Part shown: one piece after another, positions 33,802 to 40,448 of the stretch
Layout: each line of letters opens with the position of its first letter
How positions within the stretch are numbered: position 1 is the first letter of the stretch
DNA from: Nocardioides daejeonensis
GTDB taxonomy: Bacteria > Actinomycetota > Actinomycetes > Propionibacteriales > Nocardioidaceae
Assembly (NCBI RefSeq): GCF_003194585.1
Contig: NZ_QHKZ01000002.1
Span: 248,001-312,000, forward strand
Direction of reading: 5' to 3'
Length of the DNA stretch: 64,000 bases
Notes under the pieces: generated by a model
Database searches by the model: none
What the model was told of the DNA's origin: nothing
Seen by the model: only the letters and a program-made list of their open reading frames with translations
Position numbers and translations under genes: made by a program

Positions 33802-33830
33802 CCTCTCTGCCACGCCCTGTGCGTAGCCAC

Positions 33831-34145
33831 TCAACGTGGGACTTGCGCGCGCTCAACGTGGGACTTGCGCGCACTCAACGTGAGATTTGCGCGCACTCAA
33901 CGTGGGACTTGCGCGCACTCAACGTGAGATTTGCGCGCACTCAACGTGGGACTTGCGCGCACTCAACGTGGGACTTGCGCGCACTCAACGTGGGACTTGC
34001 GCGCACTCAACGTGAGATTTGCGCGCACTCAACGTGGGACTTGCGCGCACTCAACGTGAGATTTGCGCGCACTCAACGTGGGACTTGCGCGCACTCAACG
34101 TGAGATTTGCGTGCAGTCAACGTGAGATTTGCGCGCACTCAACGG
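33831..34145. repeat. 22-bp minisatellite, 14 full units in two alleles
   Basis: Fourteen exact-length units run from 33831 to 34138, plus a 7-bp partial unit that contains the stop codon (TCA, minus strand) of the ECF S-component gene. Each unit is CAACGTG, then GGACTT (type A) or AGATTT (type B), then GCGCGCAC (small changes in units 1 and 13). The order is A A B A B A A A B A B A B B. There is no spacer between units. Occupying the whole gap between the nuclease-fold gene and the ECF operon, it holds no gene. The period is not a multiple of three. Confidence 0.97.
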
Positions 34146-34951
34146 CGGACGATGACGGCGCGGCGGGAGGCGCGACGCAGGGTGACCAGGATGGAGGGGC
34201 CGAGGAGGGCGATGGCGGCGGCGTTGGTGATGGCGCGGCCGAGGTCCCACCCCATCGAGGTGAGCAGGACGTAGGCGCCGAAGCGGTGCAGGTTCTCCAA
34301 CACCGGCGCGCCGGCGACGTACGAGAGCTGGGTCTGCTCATGCCCGGGCACCTCGACGCCGAGGAGGAACGGCCAGCCCGAGAGGTTCATGAAGATCCCG
34401 TAGGCGAACGCCGAGACCACGCCGTAGGCACAGAGCATCCAGATCTCGGCCCGGCCGGCGACCCGCTTGGGCAGCAGCCCCGCGCCCAGACCGACCCAGC
34501 CGGCTACCAGCATCTGGAAAGGGAGCCAGGGCCCGACCCCCGCGGTGACCAGCGCCGAGACGAAGAGAGACATCGCGCCGAGCACGAACCCGAAGCCGGC
34601 TCCGAAGACCCGGGCCGAGAGGATCAGCAGGAAGAAGACCAGCTCGAGCCCCGCTGTGCCCGCGCTGATCCCGCGGAGCACGCCGTTGATCGCGGCCAAC
34701 ACCCCCAGGATCGCAAGCACTCGCGCGTCCATCCCGCCCTCGCTCATCTCCGCGAGCACCACCACCAGCACCAACGGCAGGAGCAGCAGGAAGAGGAACG
34801 GCGGATCCAGCCGGCTGCCCTCGCCCGGCTCGAGCAGCAACGGCCAGCAGAGCATCATCAGGCCGGCCAGCGAGGCCACGCCCAGCACCAACGCCGTACG
34901 CCGGCCCACCGGCAGCGCAGCGACCGAACGGCTCCTCAGCTGCGCACTCAT
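34139..34951 (-). CDS. ECF transporter S component (substrate-binding membrane subunit, probably cobalamin-related)
   Basis: A 270-residue membrane protein with six or more helices (ALVLGVASLAGLMMLCWPLLL, PFLFLLLLPLVLVVVLAEM, VLAILGVLAAINGVLRGIS, LVFFLLILSARVFGAGFGFVLGA, and a C-terminal helix). The helix-1/2 arrangement and small-residue motifs suit ECF S components; the substrate is inferred as cobalamin or a precursor from the riboswitch upstream of the operon. The last gene of the operon, overlapping the ATPase gene by 4 bp. Its stop codon lies inside the minisatellite. Confidence 0.8.
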   Translation of the reverse strand: MSAQLRSRSVAALPVGRRTALVLGVASLAGLMMLCWPLLLEPGEGSRLDPPFLFLLLLPLVLVVVLAEMSEGGMDARVLAILGVLAAINGVLRGISAGTAGLELVFFLLILSARVFGAGFGFVLGAMSLFVSALVTAGVGPWLPFQMLVAGWVGLGAGLLPKRVAGRAEIWMLCAYGVVSAFAYGIFMNLSGWPFLLGVEVPGHEQTQLSYVAGAPVLENLHRFGAYVLLTSMGWDLGRAITNAAAIALLGPSILVTLRRASRRAVIVRR

Positions 34952-36546
34952 CCGGCCGCCTCCAACGCGGAGGCGACCTCGTCGACCCTCAGCCAGTCCG
35001 GGCCGAGGACCTTCATCACCTGAGGTGCGAACGCCGGTGACTCCGCGACCACGCGGCGTACCGGGCCGGCAGAGACGACCTCGCCCTCGGCCAGCACCAC
35101 CACGTCGTCGGCGACGCGGGCCACGAACTCGACATCATGAGTGGCAAGCAGCACGGCATGTCCGAGCTCGGCGAGCTCCGCGAGCACGGCGGCGAGCGCC
35201 GTCTTGGCCGCATAGTCGAGTCCGCGCGTGGGCTCGTCCAGCAGCAGCACCGGCGGACGGGCGGTCAGCACGATGGCCACGACGAGGGCCAGTCGCTGCC
35301 CCTCGGAGAGGTCGCGGGGATGGGTGGCCGGGTCGATCCCCGGTGCCATCCGCGCGAGCAGCCCAGCACATCGACCGGCGGGCGCGTCGGCGGACTGGTC
35401 GGCGGCAGCACACTCCTCGGCCACGGTCTCCAGATAGAGGAGGTCGGCAGCCGTCTGCGGCACCATTCCCGCGTGAGCCCGGCGCTGCTCGCGCTTCAGC
35501 TGATGCGGGTCGGCACCGCCCACCGCCAGCCGTCCGGAGGTTCGCGCCAGCCTGCCCTGCAGGGTCCACAGCAGCGTGGACTTGCCGGAGCCGTTGCGTC
35601 CCATCAGCGCGGTGACCCGCCCCGCGTGCAACGTCAGCGAGACACCGCGCAGCACAACCCGGCGACCGTGCGCAACCACGAGCTCAGCGGCCTCGACCTC
35701 GGTCGGGCCCGGGACTCGCTCCGGCGAGTGGGCCGGCCCGCGGTCGAGTGCGCTCCGCAGCGACGAGGTACGGCGACGCGCATCACGCACGCTCAACGGA
35801 AGCGGCTGCCACCCGGCCAGTCGCCCCAGCTCCACCAACGGCGGCGCGATCGGAGAATCGGCCAGCACCGCGGCCGGCTCATCGACCAGCACGGTCCCGT
35901 CGGACCGGAGCAGGCACATCCGGTCGGCGAACGGAACCACCCGCTCCAGGCGGTGCTCGGCGACGAGCACCGACAGCCCCAGATCGTGCACCAGCCGCGT
36001 GATGGTGGCCAGCACGTCCTCGGCCGCCGTGGGATCCAGCGCAGAGGTGGGCTCGTCGAGCACCAGCAGCCGCGGGTGCATCGTCAGCACCGCACCGATA
36101 GCGACCCGCTGCTGCTGGCCGCCCGAGAGGGTGCGCAGGTCGCGGTGGCGCAGGTCGGCGATGCCGAGCAGGTCAAGCGTCTCCTCGACACGGCGGCGCA
36201 TCGTCTCCGGCGGCAGGCCGAGTTGCTCCATGCCATAGGCGAGTTCCTCCTCCACGGTGTCGGTGACGAACCATGCCGCTGGGTTCTGGCCCACATAGCC
36301 GATGGCGTGTGCGCGCTCCCGGGCAGGCTGCTCGATCACGCTCACGCCGTCCAACAGCACGTCGCCGCGTAGGACACCCCCGGTGTAGCCGGGCACCAAA
36401 CCCGCGACGACGCCGAGCAGGGTGGACTTTCCGACCCCGGTAGGGCCGGCGAGCAGCATCAGCTCACCTTCGTCGATCCGCAGGTCGATGCCGCCGAGGA
36501 TGGTGCGGTCGTCGTAGCCGAACCGCACCTCGCGCAACTCGATCAC
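34948..36546 (-). CDS. ECF transporter ATPase with two fused ABC domains
   Basis: A 532-residue ATPase combining both A subunits of an energy-coupling factor module. Domain 1 has AGPTGVGKSTLL, TLSGGQQQRVAIG and LLVLDEPTSALDP. Domain 2 (from ~280) has MGRNGSGKSTLL, DLSEGQRLALVVA and VLLLDEPTRGLDY. The Q-helix-type segments near the switch (ATHDVEFVA) are typical. It powers the neighbouring T and S subunits. Start and stop overlap both neighbours by 4 bp (ATGA). It is expected to be controlled by the cobalamin riboswitch through the operon. Confidence 0.92.
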   Translation of the reverse strand: MIELREVRFGYDDRTILGGIDLRIDEGELMLLAGPTGVGKSTLLGVVAGLVPGYTGGVLRGDVLLDGVSVIEQPARERAHAIGYVGQNPAAWFVTDTVEEELAYGMEQLGLPPETMRRRVEETLDLLGIADLRHRDLRTLSGGQQQRVAIGAVLTMHPRLLVLDEPTSALDPTAAEDVLATITRLVHDLGLSVLVAEHRLERVVPFADRMCLLRSDGTVLVDEPAAVLADSPIAPPLVELGRLAGWQPLPLSVRDARRRTSSLRSALDRGPAHSPERVPGPTEVEAAELVVAHGRRVVLRGVSLTLHAGRVTALMGRNGSGKSTLLWTLQGRLARTSGRLAVGGADPHQLKREQRRAHAGMVPQTAADLLYLETVAEECAAADQSADAPAGRCAGLLARMAPGIDPATHPRDLSEGQRLALVVAIVLTARPPVLLLDEPTRGLDYAAKTALAAVLAELAELGHAVLLATHDVEFVARVADDVVVLAEGEVVSAGPVRRVVAESPAFAPQVMKVLGPDWLRVDEVASALEAAG

Positions 36547-37694
36547 GACCTCAGCCTCTCTTCTGCAACGTCCTCATCCGACTCGACCACACTCTCCAGC
36601 TCACGGGACTCCCGGGTCAGCGGCGGCGGCGCCGCGAGCAGCGGGACGAGTCCCAGCAGACAGGCGACCAACGCCGCGAGGCTGACCTGGGGCATCTCTG
36701 CGACGGGCGGATTGGCCACCTGCACCTGCTCCTGGGCGACCCACCAGGCGACCGCGCCGGAGGCCACGCCAGAAAGTGCGATCAGCACTTCGGGTGGCCG
36801 CCACCGGTCCGCGCGGTAGCGGCTCCGGACGACGCGGCGCCCGGCCAGCACGAAGCCCGCAAGGGCGACCGCGATGCCGGCTCCCATCATCGGCATCCCC
36901 AGCCACCAGGGCGACGTGCCGTCGAGGAAGCCGTAGACGCCCGCGCAGACGCCGAGCAACCCGGTCAGCATCACCGCGCCAGTGAGCCGTCGCTGTGCCG
37001 GTGGTGCAGCGCCGGGGCGCCCGTAGCCACGGGTATCCATGCCCGCCGCCAGCGCCAGCGAGCGCTCGAAGGCATCTTCCAGGACCGGCACCAGAAAGCG
37101 TCGAAGTCCGCGGATCCGGCCCGGCGGCCCGCCGCGCAGCTCCTGGGCGGCGCGAACCCGCTTGGCGCTGTCGGCCAACTGCGGCAGCACCGTCACGGCG
37201 ACCACGAGCGCAGTGCCGATCTCGTAGAGCGCCGGAGGCAGGGACTTCATCAGCCGCTTGGGGTTGGCCAACGCGTTGGCCGCCCCGACGGCGACCACGA
37301 TCATGCCCAGCCGCATCCCGTCGTACAACCCGGCCAACAGTGCCTCACGGGTCACCGGGCCGAGCAGGCTGATGCCCGCCGCCCAGTCCGGGAGCGGGAT
37401 CTCCGGGAGATCGAGCAGGACGTGGCCGGCCGTTCCGCTGCCGAGTACCACTCGGAAGAGCGTCCGGGTGATCACGATGACCACGCCCAGCGCCAGGTAG
37501 AAACGGAACGCCCGCGCCCACACTCCATCACCCCGGCACGCCATGACCACGGCGCAGACCACAGCGCCCAGCAGCAACAACAGCAGCGGGTTGGTCGTGA
37601 ACGTCGCCGCCGCGGCCAGCCCGATCGCCCACGCCCACCACGCGCCGGGATGGAGCTCTCGAGCCAGCCGTGGGCGCGCGACGCCCGCGCTCAC
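36543..37694 (-). CDS. ECF transporter T component
   Basis: A 383-residue transmembrane coupling subunit. The N-terminal helices (WWAWAIGLAAAATFTTNPLLLLLLGAVV) are followed by RTLFRVVL and the cytoplasmic coupling helices with the characteristic Ala-x-x-Arg patterns: AQELRGG and AAGMDTRGYGR. It is longer than usual, with extra C-terminal helices (VLIALSGVASGAVAWWVA, SLAALVACLLGLVPLLAA) and an acidic end. The start is GTG 37694, overlapping the previous stop as GTGA, and the upstream gene supplies coupled ribosomes. Confidence 0.88.
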   Translation of the reverse strand: MSAGVARPRLARELHPGAWWAWAIGLAAAATFTTNPLLLLLLGAVVCAVVMACRGDGVWARAFRFYLALGVVIVITRTLFRVVLGSGTAGHVLLDLPEIPLPDWAAGISLLGPVTREALLAGLYDGMRLGMIVVAVGAANALANPKRLMKSLPPALYEIGTALVVAVTVLPQLADSAKRVRAAQELRGGPPGRIRGLRRFLVPVLEDAFERSLALAAGMDTRGYGRPGAAPPAQRRLTGAVMLTGLLGVCAGVYGFLDGTSPWWLGMPMMGAGIAVALAGFVLAGRRVVRSRYRADRWRPPEVLIALSGVASGAVAWWVAQEQVQVANPPVAEMPQVSLAALVACLLGLVPLLAAPPPLTRESRELESVVESDEDVAEERLRS

Positions 37695-38566
37695 CCTGCC
37701 CTGCGCCGTACGGCGACCGCACCACCCGCCGCACCGACCAGCACGACCGCGACGATCGGGATCCACAGCGGAAGTCCGTCGTCGCCGCCGTCGGCACCGT
37801 CGACGGTCCCACCCTCCGGCGGACCATCGGTGATCTCGTCGACCGTCGGTACGTCGCTGCTCGTGTCGTCGCTGGGTGCGGCGGAGCCCGACGGCTCACC
37901 CGAGGCGCTCTCCTCCGACGACGACTCCGTCGGCTCGGCCGACGTCGTGGACTCCGTGGGGGTTGCGGTCGACTCAGCCGCCGAAGGCGCGGTGGTGGAG
38001 GGCTTCGCCGGCTGTTGCGAGGCGCTCTTGGTCGGCTTCGGCGTCGGCTTCTTCGTCGGCTGCGGGGCCGGCGTGCTGCGCTTGGGTGTGACCCCCGGCG
38101 GCTTCGCGTTGCCGCTTCCCTCGTGCCAGGCGAAGGCCACGTAGCTGCCTTCGGGGACCCGGAGCTGCGTGACACCCCGGGTCGCGTAGGTCCACGTTCC
38201 GCTGGTGGGGCCGGCGTACCAGAGGGACCAGTACGCGTCGGCCGGCGGCGCGGAGGTGCAGGAGGCGTCAGCCGGCACCCCGGCGACCCGGCACACCATG
38301 CCGACCCCGGGACCGCGGTCGACGTAGCTGATCGCGAACCCGGCCTGGGTGAAGGCAGTGCTGGCGGTGCCGCCACCCGCACCGGAGGCGCATCCGGCCT
38401 GGATGCCTCCCTTGTCGCCGTAGTCGACGACGACCGTCACACCGGTGTTACCGGTGCAAGCGGCTGCTGCAGCTGGATGGCCGAACGAGCCGGGCAGTAC
38501 GGCACCCACCGCCGCGGTCAGCAGGACCGCGGCGGTGGAGCCGAGCAGGCGACGGATCCGACTCAT
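37691..38566 (-). CDS. Secreted, membrane-anchored SCO2322/DUF4430-like protein
   Basis: A 291-residue exported protein: signal peptide (STAAVLLTAAVGAVLPGSFGHPAAA), a ~120-residue beta-rich domain, a long Ser/Thr/Pro/Glu-rich stalk (~155-250) and a C-terminal membrane helix (LPLWIPIVAVVLVGAAGGAVAV) with an Arg-rich stop. The domain has four Cys (CTGNTG, QAGC, VCRVAG, SCTSA), consistent with two disulfides, and ends YWSLWYAGPTSGTWTYATRGVTQLRVPEGSYVAFAWHEG in outline. The pattern (aromatic W-x-x-W strand, then P-G-S-Y) is like DUF4430, the beta-domain of transcobalamin. It is the second gene of the riboswitch operon. The assignment comes from memory of the motif and should be tested by profile search. 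Confidence 0.7.
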   Translation of the reverse strand: MSRIRRLLGSTAAVLLTAAVGAVLPGSFGHPAAAAACTGNTGVTVVVDYGDKGGIQAGCASGAGGGTASTAFTQAGFAISYVDRGPGVGMVCRVAGVPADASCTSAPPADAYWSLWYAGPTSGTWTYATRGVTQLRVPEGSYVAFAWHEGSGNAKPPGVTPKRSTPAPQPTKKPTPKPTKSASQQPAKPSTTAPSAAESTATPTESTTSAEPTESSSEESASGEPSGSAAPSDDTSSDVPTVDEITDGPPEGGTVDGADGGDDGLPLWIPIVAVVLVGAAGGAVAVRRRAG

Positions 38567-40176
38567 CGCACCCGGAAGGTCGTCGCACCCTTGCGGTTGG
38601 CGAACTGACCGGTCGCCTGGAGCTTGACCTTGCCGGCCTTCTTCGGAGCCTTCACCTTGGCCTTGAAGGTTCCCTTGGCGTTGGCAGTGCCCTTGGCGAC
38701 AGCCTTCTTGCCCAGCTTCAGCTTGACCTTCTCGCCTGCGGCGAGGCCGGTGACCGTGACCTTGTTCTTCTTGCCCTTCTTGACGGCCGCCTTCGCCGCC
38801 TTGACCTTGAGCTTCGCCTTGCCGAGCACGGAGACGGTGGTCTCGGCGCTGTCATCGGCCGTGACCAGCGTCAGGGTGCGGACGCCGGTGCTGGCGGGCA
38901 GCGTCACCGTTGCCGTGCCGGGGCCCGTCGCGGTCACCGCGGCCTTGCCTCCGACCACGCAGACCCGCTCCCCGGCGGCCACGCCGGTCAGCGTGACCGC
39001 GGTGCGCGAGCCGCCGGCGAGATAGCCGTTCTTGCCCTGCACGCCGAGGGTGCCCTCGGCCGCGGGGGCCAGCGTCAGCAGCGGCAGCGCCTGCGCGGCG
39101 GAGCGGACGTAGATGCCACGCTCAAGGTCGCCGATGCCGTCCTGGGCGGCAGCGGTCAGGTCGTCGTCGTTGTAGGCGATCGCTCCGGCCTCGGCGCCCG
39201 TGCCGGGCTCGCAGGCGTCGATCCCGGTGAGCTGGTGCGCGCGCACCCAGATCGCGGCGCGGGTCGCCGCCTCGTCCTCACCCAACTCCGCGAGGACGCT
39301 GCCGGCCAGACCCGTCGAGTTGGCATTGGCGCCCTCGGTAGTGGCGCCTCCGCCGAACGAACCGTCGGTCTTCTGCAGATCCAGCAGGTAGTCGGTTCCC
39401 TCCTCGATCGCCGCGACCACGTCGGGGTCGGAGCTGTCGAGGGAGTCCAGCGCCTTGAGGGCGCCGGAGGTGGCGTCGGTGGTCGCTTCGGCGGGGTCGG
39501 TGCAGCCCGCGTCCTGGCTGTTGAAGTTGAGCCGGAAGCCCCCGTTGTCACACTGCTGGAGCAACAGGAAGTCGGTCACCGCGGCGGTGGCGGTGGAGTC
39601 GGTCGCACCAAGCCCGCGTACGGCGAAGCTCTGGCCGACCACGTTGGCGTAGTCACCGTAGGAGCTGTCGTCCGCGATCCTGCCGCTCGCGGTCACCCGG
39701 GCCTCGAGGGCCGCTACCAGGTCGACGCCGCCGAAGTCGCGGGGGTCTGCGCCGAGCTCGGTGGCCGCGGTCAGGGTCTTGGCGGTAGCGCCGGCGTAGT
39801 GGCCCACCTGGACGAAGTCGAACGGCTCGGTGAACCCGTACTCGTCGCCCTGGATGTAGCGGCCCGCTGCGACCTCGGCTGCCACCGCGTCACGGATCTC
39901 GGTGACTGTCGCGTCCTGGCCGCCCGCTGCCTTCAGCGCAAGCGCGACGTCGATCGACAGGCCCTGGTCGACGAACTCGGAGACCTGGCCGTTGAACTCG
40001 CTCTTGACGGTCACCAGACCGTCGACCGGCTGGGCGGCCAACCAGGTGGCCCCCAAGGCTGCGGGCCGGGCGTCGGTGGCCGCGTGCGCGGCGGTGATCG
40101 GAAGCGCCAGCGTCAGCCCGGCGGCGAGCGCGCCTGCTCCGGCGAGGGCGACTGCGCGACGTACCTGCGTCGTCAA
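38563..40176 (-). CDS. Secreted alpha/alpha-toroid protein with prenyltransferase/squalene-cyclase-type repeats
   Basis: A 537-residue exported protein. The signal peptide (AVALAGAGALAAGLTLALP...AHA) is followed by ~300 residues of helical hairpins with LxxQxxDGGF-like repeats (FLLLQQCDNGGFRLNF, YLLDLQKTDGSFGGG), typical of the terpenoid-cyclase/transcobalamin alpha6-alpha6 barrel. The C-terminus has Ig-like strands and a Lys-rich region (KVKAAKAAVKKGKKNKVTV) that may hold it to the wall. The start is TTG 40176, 8 nt after GGAAGG. It is the first gene after the cobalamin riboswitch and overlaps the DUF4430-like gene by 4 bp. There are no catalytic DxDD motifs, so binding rather than catalysis is likely. 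Confidence 0.78.
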   Translation of the reverse strand: MTTQVRRAVALAGAGALAAGLTLALPITAAHAATDARPAALGATWLAAQPVDGLVTVKSEFNGQVSEFVDQGLSIDVALALKAAGGQDATVTEIRDAVAAEVAAGRYIQGDEYGFTEPFDFVQVGHYAGATAKTLTAATELGADPRDFGGVDLVAALEARVTASGRIADDSSYGDYANVVGQSFAVRGLGATDSTATAAVTDFLLLQQCDNGGFRLNFNSQDAGCTDPAEATTDATSGALKALDSLDSSDPDVVAAIEEGTDYLLDLQKTDGSFGGGATTEGANANSTGLAGSVLAELGEDEAATRAAIWVRAHQLTGIDACEPGTGAEAGAIAYNDDDLTAAAQDGIGDLERGIYVRSAAQALPLLTLAPAAEGTLGVQGKNGYLAGGSRTAVTLTGVAAGERVCVVGGKAAVTATGPGTATVTLPASTGVRTLTLVTADDSAETTVSVLGKAKLKVKAAKAAVKKGKKNKVTVTGLAAGEKVKLKLGKKAVAKGTANAKGTFKAKVKAPKKAGKVKLQATGQFANRKGATTFRVR

Positions 40177-40254
40177 GGTGTGTCCTTCCCGCTGCGATGA
40201 ACGGGAGGGTTCGAGGCCCCTGCCCGCTGCACTCCACGACAGCGTTCGTCTAGG

Positions 40255-40353
40255 CGTCGCGAGGCAGGTGCTCCGGCTGTCCCCCCGACGAGCAGGAGGG
40301 TCACGGTTGCGGGTCAGCGCCGGAGTCTCACCGGCTTCCCCCACCAGACGACG
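40255..40353 (-). ncRNA. Cobalamin (AdoCbl-type) riboswitch
   Basis: Minus-strand RNA upstream of the ECF operon. It contains the conserved core GGGAAGCCGGTGAGACTCCG, then the GCGCTGACCCGCAACCGT segment (B12-box region) and AGCCGGAGCACCTGCC near the 3' end, each in the right order. P1 closes with CGTCG (from 40353) and CGACG (to 40255). About 75 nt separate it from the RBS of the first gene, enough for an expression platform. It is expected to shut down the operon when cobalamin is plentiful, as these switches do for B12 uptake genes. Confidence 0.92.
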
Positions 40354-40448
40354 TAGTCATCGAATTGTGTGCGCCGACCGTGCCGGCCGGCACCCCACGG
40401 TACCCCGGTTCGGACGGTCCCACCGAAACCGCCCGCTCACGGGACGCA

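What the first reader, a model, noticed from the sequence alone, without database searches (positions are those of the whole stretch)
34139..40353. Cobalamin riboswitch operon with a candidate split bacterial transcobalamin and a dedicated ECF transporter
Directly seen: a cobalamin riboswitch at 40255-40353, then five genes that all overlap by 4 bp. The first encodes a secreted protein with terpenoid-cyclase-type alpha/alpha repeats. The second encodes a secreted, stalked, membrane-anchored beta-rich protein with four cysteines and a DUF4430-like aromatic pattern. The rest are ECF T, fused A and S subunits. Known: animal transcobalamin and intrinsic factor consist of an alpha6-alpha6 barrel related to terpenoid cyclases plus a small beta domain (DUF4430/transcobalamin-like C-terminal). 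Inference: the two secreted proteins are the two halves on separate chains, holding B12 (or a precursor) between them at the membrane and handing it to the S component. I am aware of SCO2322-type naming for the second gene in Streptomyces but not of a described function, so this may be an undescribed B12 capture system.
Basis: partly seen in the sequence, partly recalled or inferred. Interest (0 to 1): 0.88.

Follow-up and report, generated by a model that had tools for sequence, protein, structure and literature searches.

The report
Two-piece bacterial transcobalamin with dedicated importer
This bacterial operon, headed by an RNA element of the vitamin-B12 riboswitch family, encodes as two separate pieces a protein predicted to resemble transcobalamin, the B12 carrier of animal blood, next to an importer that would likely bring the captured vitamin into the cell.

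Summary
A cobalamin riboswitch (40246-40363, minus strand) heads five genes joined by four 4-bp overlaps: secreted alpha/alpha toroid, secreted membrane-anchored beta domain, ECF T, A-A and S.

Relatives support a partnership. Toroid-SLBB-T-A-S order recurs across Actinomycetota. Both parts are fused in one chain in some lineages, in either order. In six genomes the toroid gene and the SLBB-ECF genes lie apart, each behind its own cobalamin-riboswitch candidate.

I infer a two-chain, transcobalamin-like corrinoid trap feeding an ECF importer. Binding, substrate and hand-off are untested, and my fusion model did not reproduce the clamped domain arrangement. Two genomes have the beta-domain/ECF genes with neither toroid nor riboswitch.

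The general idea is published: Burroughs et al. 2007 proposed bacterial transcobalamin-like proteins with CbiO/CbiQ. New, within the library searched, are the regular two-chain actinobacterial form, its riboswitch regulon and a circularly permuted SCO2322 form. Verdict: new variant of a known kind.

The parts
40246..40363 (-). Cobalamin riboswitch aptamer (RF00174), ending 70 nt before the gene 1 start
   Evidence: cmscan 36.7 bits, gathering score 31.5; found again in the whole-genome search
38563..40176 (-). Gene 1: secreted alpha/alpha toroid protein, 537 aa, with a Lys-rich C-terminal extension
   Evidence: NCBIfam SCO2321_fam 50.7 bits (cut-off 300, not reached); family profile matches squalene-hopene cyclases E 2.9e-34
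39067..40080 (-). Toroid region of gene 1 (about residues 33-370), with D234, N284, S287 identical in 61 of 61 near relatives
   Evidence: alignment A2 and column counts
38566..39024 (-). C-terminal extension of gene 1 (about residues 385-537), Lys-rich (25 Lys in the last 120 residues); role unknown, wall binding would be a guess
37691..38566 (-). Gene 2: secreted, membrane-anchored transcobalamin-beta-like (SLBB) protein, 291 aa
   Evidence: relatives
38117..38464 (-). SLBB (beta-grasp, transcobalamin beta-domain fold) domain of gene 2, about residues 35-150
   Evidence: AlphaFold2 model md18c4c2ea012, pLDDT 88.4, pTM 0.84; Foldseek and VIA-align matches
37703..37783 (-). C-terminal membrane anchor of gene 2 (residues 262-288)
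   Evidence: hydropathy
36543..37694 (-). ECF T component (CbiQ family), GTG start overlapping gene 2 by 4 bp
   Evidence: Pfam CbiQ 42.5 bits
34948..36546 (-). ECF ATPase, two ABC domains in one chain
   Evidence: Pfam ABC_tran, two stretches; TIGR04521 273.8 bits, under its cut-off of 330
34139..34951 (-). ECF S component (predicted substrate-binding subunit)
   Evidence: Pfam ECF_trnsprt 36.0 bits, cut-off 30.7

Best explanation
The operon encodes, on two separate chains, a secreted alpha/alpha toroid and a membrane-anchored domain predicted to have the transcobalamin beta-domain fold, which likely close around a corrinoid such as B12 and would hand it to the ECF importer encoded with them. 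Step 1 (riboswitch shown by family match, its direction of control inferred): when cell B12 is low, the cobalamin riboswitch lets the operon be expressed. Step 2 (inferred): the toroid and the stalked SLBB domain meet outside the membrane and trap a corrinoid between them, as the two halves of human transcobalamin do, which when made separately assemble only in the presence of cobalamin (PMC5599065). Step 3 (inferred): the anchored SLBB half holds the loaded complex close to the S component, which takes over the corrinoid, and the T and A-A subunits drive import with ATP. In this genome, which also carries many B12 biosynthesis genes, the system would serve salvage.
Confidence: 0.77

Rival explanations
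1. The module takes up a B12 building block rather than a corrinoid: cobalt, or a lower-ligand precursor such as dimethylbenzimidazole or alpha-ribazole. The riboswitch is explained by pathway control, and the toroid and SLBB proteins bind the precursor or only tether the transporter.
For: T is a CbiQ-family protein. One control ECF locus with a cobalamin riboswitch is a CbiQ-CbiO pair. The host has B12 biosynthesis genes. Burroughs et al. also allow B12 precursors. Precursor ECF systems are recalled, not looked up.
Against: S matches the vitamin-type ECF_trnsprt family. A toroid plus a transcobalamin-type beta domain is the architecture of known corrinoid binders.
Confidence: 0.12
2. The two secreted proteins bind B12 but are not part of the import path: they store, sense or protect B12 at the surface, and the ECF genes are co-regulated neighbours.
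For: In L070 and L069 toroid and SLBB stand without T, A, S in the stretch read, and in L071 the ECF genes are divergent. Fusions carry CWB2 or SLH surface modules.
Against: SLBB stays with T-A-S even when the toroid gene has moved away, and the five genes overlap by 4 bp in the window.
Confidence: 0.06
3. Gene 1 is an enzyme of the terpene-cyclase superfamily that acts on an extracellular substrate, and the resemblance to transcobalamin is only the shared toroid.
For: The best sequence and VIA-align matches of the toroid are squalene-hopene cyclases and drimenyl diphosphate synthases.
Against: It is secreted, joined or fused to a transcobalamin-type beta domain, and the DxDD stretch of class II cyclases (motif recalled) reads TTDA in the window and mostly D-x-[DN]-T in relatives.
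Confidence: 0.03

Closest known systems
Animal transcobalamin, intrinsic factor and haptocorrin (e.g. PDB 2bb5, 2pmv, 4kki)
   Same: Toroid plus small beta-grasp domain; gene 2's domain model has that beta-domain fold; some bacterial relatives carry both in the same toroid-first order in one chain.
   Different: In the window the two parts are separate chains, one of them membrane-anchored, encoded with an ECF importer; B12 binding is unknown; the toroid is closer to terpene cyclases; the residue aligned with the transcobalamin cobalt-binding His173 is Gly in the L042 fusion.
Bacterial transcobalamin-like SLBB proteins of Burroughs et al. 2007 (PMC1796856, passages read)
   Same: Secreted or surface SLBB domains, toroid fusions in both orders, neighbouring CbiO/CbiQ-like genes, proposed B12 scavenging.
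   Different: [quoted passage not shown] Here: Actinomycetota, regularly two chains, a cobalamin riboswitch, a B12-synthesising host, and permuted forms.
NCBIfam SCO2321 family membrane protein and SCO2322 family protein
   Same: Same operon position in genus g4 genomes; these names pass their cut-offs there.
   Different: Window gene 1 is below the SCO2321 cut-off (50.7 of 300) and gene 2 has no SCO2322 match at E <= 1. The SCO2322 form is circularly permuted relative to gene 2 in 4 of 4 loci.
ECF-CbrT vitamin B12 transporter of Lactobacillus delbrueckii (PMC5997447, passages read)
   Same: ECF-type importer; CbrT takes up cobalamin and cobinamide.
   Different: The window has its own T, A-A and S in one operon with secreted partners; the window S has no sequence match to an ECF S chain in the PDB at E <= 1.

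Membership tests
Transcobalamin / intrinsic factor / haptocorrin | C-terminal beta domain of the transcobalamin type | tested here: met
   [not shown]
Transcobalamin / intrinsic factor / haptocorrin | Alpha/alpha toroid domain | tested here: met
   [not shown]
Transcobalamin / intrinsic factor / haptocorrin | Both domains in one polypeptide | tested here: not met
   Two genes in the window; met only in some relatives
Transcobalamin / intrinsic factor / haptocorrin | Domains packed around the ligand | tested here: inconclusive
   Fusion model aligns to both domains but at rmsd about 20 A; no ligand in the prediction
Transcobalamin / intrinsic factor / haptocorrin | High-affinity corrinoid binding | not testable with these tools
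   Needs protein
SLBB superfamily, transcobalamin-like clade (Burroughs 2007) | Beta-grasp with a beta-hairpin inserted after the helix | tested here: met
   By strand order only: after helix 39-45 come short strands 50-52 and 62-65, then 82-89 and 113-120; the same order in the fusion model
Pfam PF14478 (DUF4430) | Profile match over the curated cut-off | tested here: not met
   No match at E <= 1 for gene 2, in 0 of 48 members at E <= 0.1, none in the genome at E <= 10
NCBIfam SCO2321_fam and SCO2322_fam | Score over the curated cut-off | tested here: not met
   Gene 1 50.7 bits of 300; gene 2 no match. Relatives in genus g4 pass
ECF transporter | T (CbiQ family), two ATPase domains and an S component encoded together | tested here: met
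   Pfam matches over cut-off for T, A and S
CbrT-type S component | Sequence relation to the solved CbrT chain | tested here: inconclusive
   No ECF S chain among PDB sequence matches at E <= 1; S components are often too divergent for this test (recalled)
Cobalamin riboswitch RF00174 | Covariance-model score over the gathering threshold | tested here: met
   36.7 bits, threshold 31.5

The most novel reading that the evidence does not exclude
Actinobacteria run transcobalamin as a two-subunit machine: a free toroid and a membrane-tethered beta domain snap together only around a corrinoid, and the tethered half delivers it straight to a dedicated ECF S component. The pair is a mobile kit that evolution has kept as two genes, fused in both orders, moved to separate loci under separate riboswitches, and in the SCO2322 lineage circularly permuted, so animal intrinsic factor and transcobalamin are the one-chain version of a bacterial two-chain uptake device.
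Probability: 0.55. Interest if true: 0.82.

Novelty: new variant of a known kind. Interest (0 to 1): 0.68.

Why it matters
Gram-positive B12 uptake through ECF systems is poorly charted, and extracellular partners of ECF S components are unusual (recalled). If right, a widespread actinobacterial operon whose first two products NCBI names only SCO2321 and SCO2322 family proteins gets a function, and the animal B12 carriers gain a bacterial two-chain counterpart that makes ligand-driven domain assembly, already seen with artificially separated human transcobalamin halves (PMC5599065), directly testable in a natural system.

Tried and rejected
Tried without success or dropped. (1) hhalign of the toroid, SLBB and fusion alignments against a human transcobalamin sequence gave no significant score (P 0.042, 0.046, 0.36, 0.096), and the toroid alignment came out in another register. 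(2) A mixed alignment for folding (A6) was rejected because toroid rows spilled into the SLBB half; the fusion-only alignment A7 was used instead. (3) Profile A1 against PDB sequences matched only low-complexity stretches. (4) Phylum search with A1: 79 of 246 genomes matched at E <= 1e-3, but many rows match only the low-complexity stalk. I took forward 34 loci in 33 genomes that cover the domain and 8 loci with partial hits; of the 8, five are real (L240, L241, L242, L246, L247) and three (L243-L245) are short matches, L243 being by my reading a surface protein of another type. The other rows were not examined. (5) PDB search with the window S component found no ECF chain. (6) The enzyme reading of gene 1 was considered and placed as a rival. 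(7) The conserved residues D234 and N284 align with human transcobalamin D176 and N224 in one MAFFT placement (through the fusion L042); that these two contact B12 is recalled, the positions vary between D and N across the phylum (15 D and 14 N; 16 N and 13 D; 29 rows), and I do not rest the case on it.

Literature limits. Searches for DUF4430, SCO2322, SCO2320-2325, transcobalamin-like with ECF, and riboswitch with ECF in Streptomyces showed no description of the actinobacterial two-chain system in this open-licence library; most subscription papers are not in it. Of six papers naming DUF4430 I saw only the listing. Rodionov et al. 2009 is not held; I know it only through PMC5997447. Papers seen as passages only: PMC1796856, PMC5997447, PMC4947154, PMC11107200, PMC5599065.

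Full report
What is there. The window carries, on the minus strand, a cobalamin riboswitch (40363-40246; 36.7 bits, threshold 31.5) followed by five genes with four 4-bp overlaps: a secreted toroid protein (gene 1), a secreted, stalked, membrane-anchored small domain (gene 2), ECF T, a double ATPase and an S component. The window lies in a genome of 4.40 Mb (G000); the closest listed relatives of gene 1 are from Nocardioides alcanivorans (68-69% identity).

Gene 1. The single sequence hits toroid families weakly and SCO2321_fam with 50.7 of the required 300 bits. The family alignment A4 matches squalene-hopene cyclases at E 2.9e-34. Near relatives keep D234, T236, N284 and S287 in 61 of 61 rows; across the phylum the D and N positions vary between D and N.

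Neighbourhood. Of 34 loci from 33 other genomes of the phylum, 19 have the order toroid-SLBB-T-A-S, two have a fusion in place of the toroid with T-A-S, one has the toroid after S, four have SLBB-T-A-S without a toroid in reach, two (L056, L066) have SLBB with T/A/S in one frame and no toroid, two are cut by contig ends, and four are other arrangements. In an independent scan with the toroid, 68 of the 80 best loci (of 299) have the full order, 6 a toroid alone, and 6 an incomplete order; the titles are mostly Nocardioides, Marmoricola and other Nocardioidaceae.

Regulation. An in-line cobalamin riboswitch reaches gathering score before 15 of the 34 loci. In the remaining loci a sensitive scan of upstream stretches finds in-line candidates at E <= 0.01 for 13 more and at E 0.086 for L060; L048 (E 0.23) and L067 (contig end, E 0.44) are doubtful, and L051 (contig end), L056 and L066 have none. 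Of five further loci, L246, L240 and L247 have an in-line candidate and L241 and L242 none at E <= 0.5. I passed 20 of the 80 Nocardioidaceae loci to a whole-genome search; 19 genomes were held, and in 19 of 19 a match lies 38-172 nt before a toroid gene on its strand (20 sites with L138; 7 above gathering score, 13 below). Control: of 14 ECF T loci without toroid or SLBB (the first 14 of 30 fetched), 1 has a cobalamin riboswitch at gathering score, before a CbiQ-CbiO pair. The control was scanned at gathering score only, so the fair comparison is 15 of 34 against 1 of 14.

The most telling case is six genomes in which the toroid gene lies away from SLBB-T-A-S: G247, G248, G257 and G134, G102, G166. 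Each of the twelve loci has an in-line cobalamin riboswitch candidate; 4 of the 12 exceed the gathering score of the family that matched. The two transcription units were separated and both stayed with the same signal.

Against. In G008 and G225 the SLBB-ECF genes occur with no toroid anywhere in the genome by this search and no riboswitch; those may serve another substrate. The host encodes CobN, CobF, CobI/J, CobM, a CobA-type adenosyltransferase, CobBC and CbiB over their cut-offs and, behind another riboswitch, a BtuCD-like ABC importer whose parts score under the cut-offs of the BtuC and F420-0 models. So uptake here would be salvage, unlike the hosts in Burroughs et al., which usually lacked B12 synthesis genes.

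A by-product: in four loci of genus g4 (L240, L241, L242, L247) the SLBB profile matches in swapped order, positions 81-123 first (E 1e-8 to 4e-12), then about 5-81 (E 0.001 to 0.009), 4 of 4. These proteins pass the SCO2322 cut-off (200.6-231.8 bits, cut-off 85), and the two toroids tested pass SCO2321. SCO2322 is thus predicted to be a circular permutant of the transcobalamin beta domain. One genome, G171, holds both forms (L041, L247).

How it most likely works. Human transcobalamin halves made separately co-elute only with cobalamin, and the beta half alone binds it (PMC5599065, passages). The window operon looks like a natural version of that split: the toroid chain and the anchored beta chain would close on a corrinoid at the membrane and pass it to S. 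Riboswitch family, gene order, fold of the beta domain and fusion in relatives are shown by computation; binding, assembly, substrate and hand-off are inferred.

Known and new. The concept of bacterial transcobalamin-like proteins with toroids and CbiO/CbiQ neighbours is from Burroughs et al. 2007 (PMC1796856, passages). Within the library searched I found no account of the actinobacterial two-chain form, its riboswitch regulon or the permuted SCO2322 form. I rate it a new variant of a known kind.

Noticed in passing
33828-34144: Tandem array of a 22-bp unit (14.4 copies, 91% matches) immediately after the S gene, with two alternating unit versions; the unit also occurs elsewhere in the genome (23 forward and 8 reverse matches at up to 2 mismatches, reversed control 0).
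   Followed up: partly
L240:6137-6805, L241:5498-6139, L242:5370-5996, L247:5722-6390: SCO2322-family proteins match the SLBB profile in swapped halves, i.e. a predicted circular permutation (4 of 4).
   Followed up: partly
L218:11838-16059 (G000:C16): Same genome: BtuCD-like ABC importer genes (substrate-binding protein, two permeases, ATPase) beside a cobalamin riboswitch within a B12 biosynthesis region.
   Followed up: partly
L056:2537-6015 and L066:2608-6199: SLBB genes beside T/A/S readable in one long frame, with no toroid in the genome and no riboswitch found; possibly another substrate.
   Followed up: no
L051, L053, L062: A bacterial RNase P RNA gene lies close to the S-gene end of the operon in three loci.
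   Followed up: no
L044:5685-10061: Tandem toroid-SLBB-toroid-SLBB arrangement before T-A-S, suggesting duplicated pairs.
   Followed up: no
proteins P0021, P0041, P0046, P0170-P0172, P0179, P0183: These carry the precomputed label PF28005, which the Pfam copy searched here did not report for P0021, P0041 and P0046; it may be a newer family for this domain.
   Followed up: no
38566-39024: Gene 1 ends in a Lys-rich extension (25 Lys in the last 120 residues) not seen in the shorter relatives of about 360-390 aa; role unknown.
   Followed up: no
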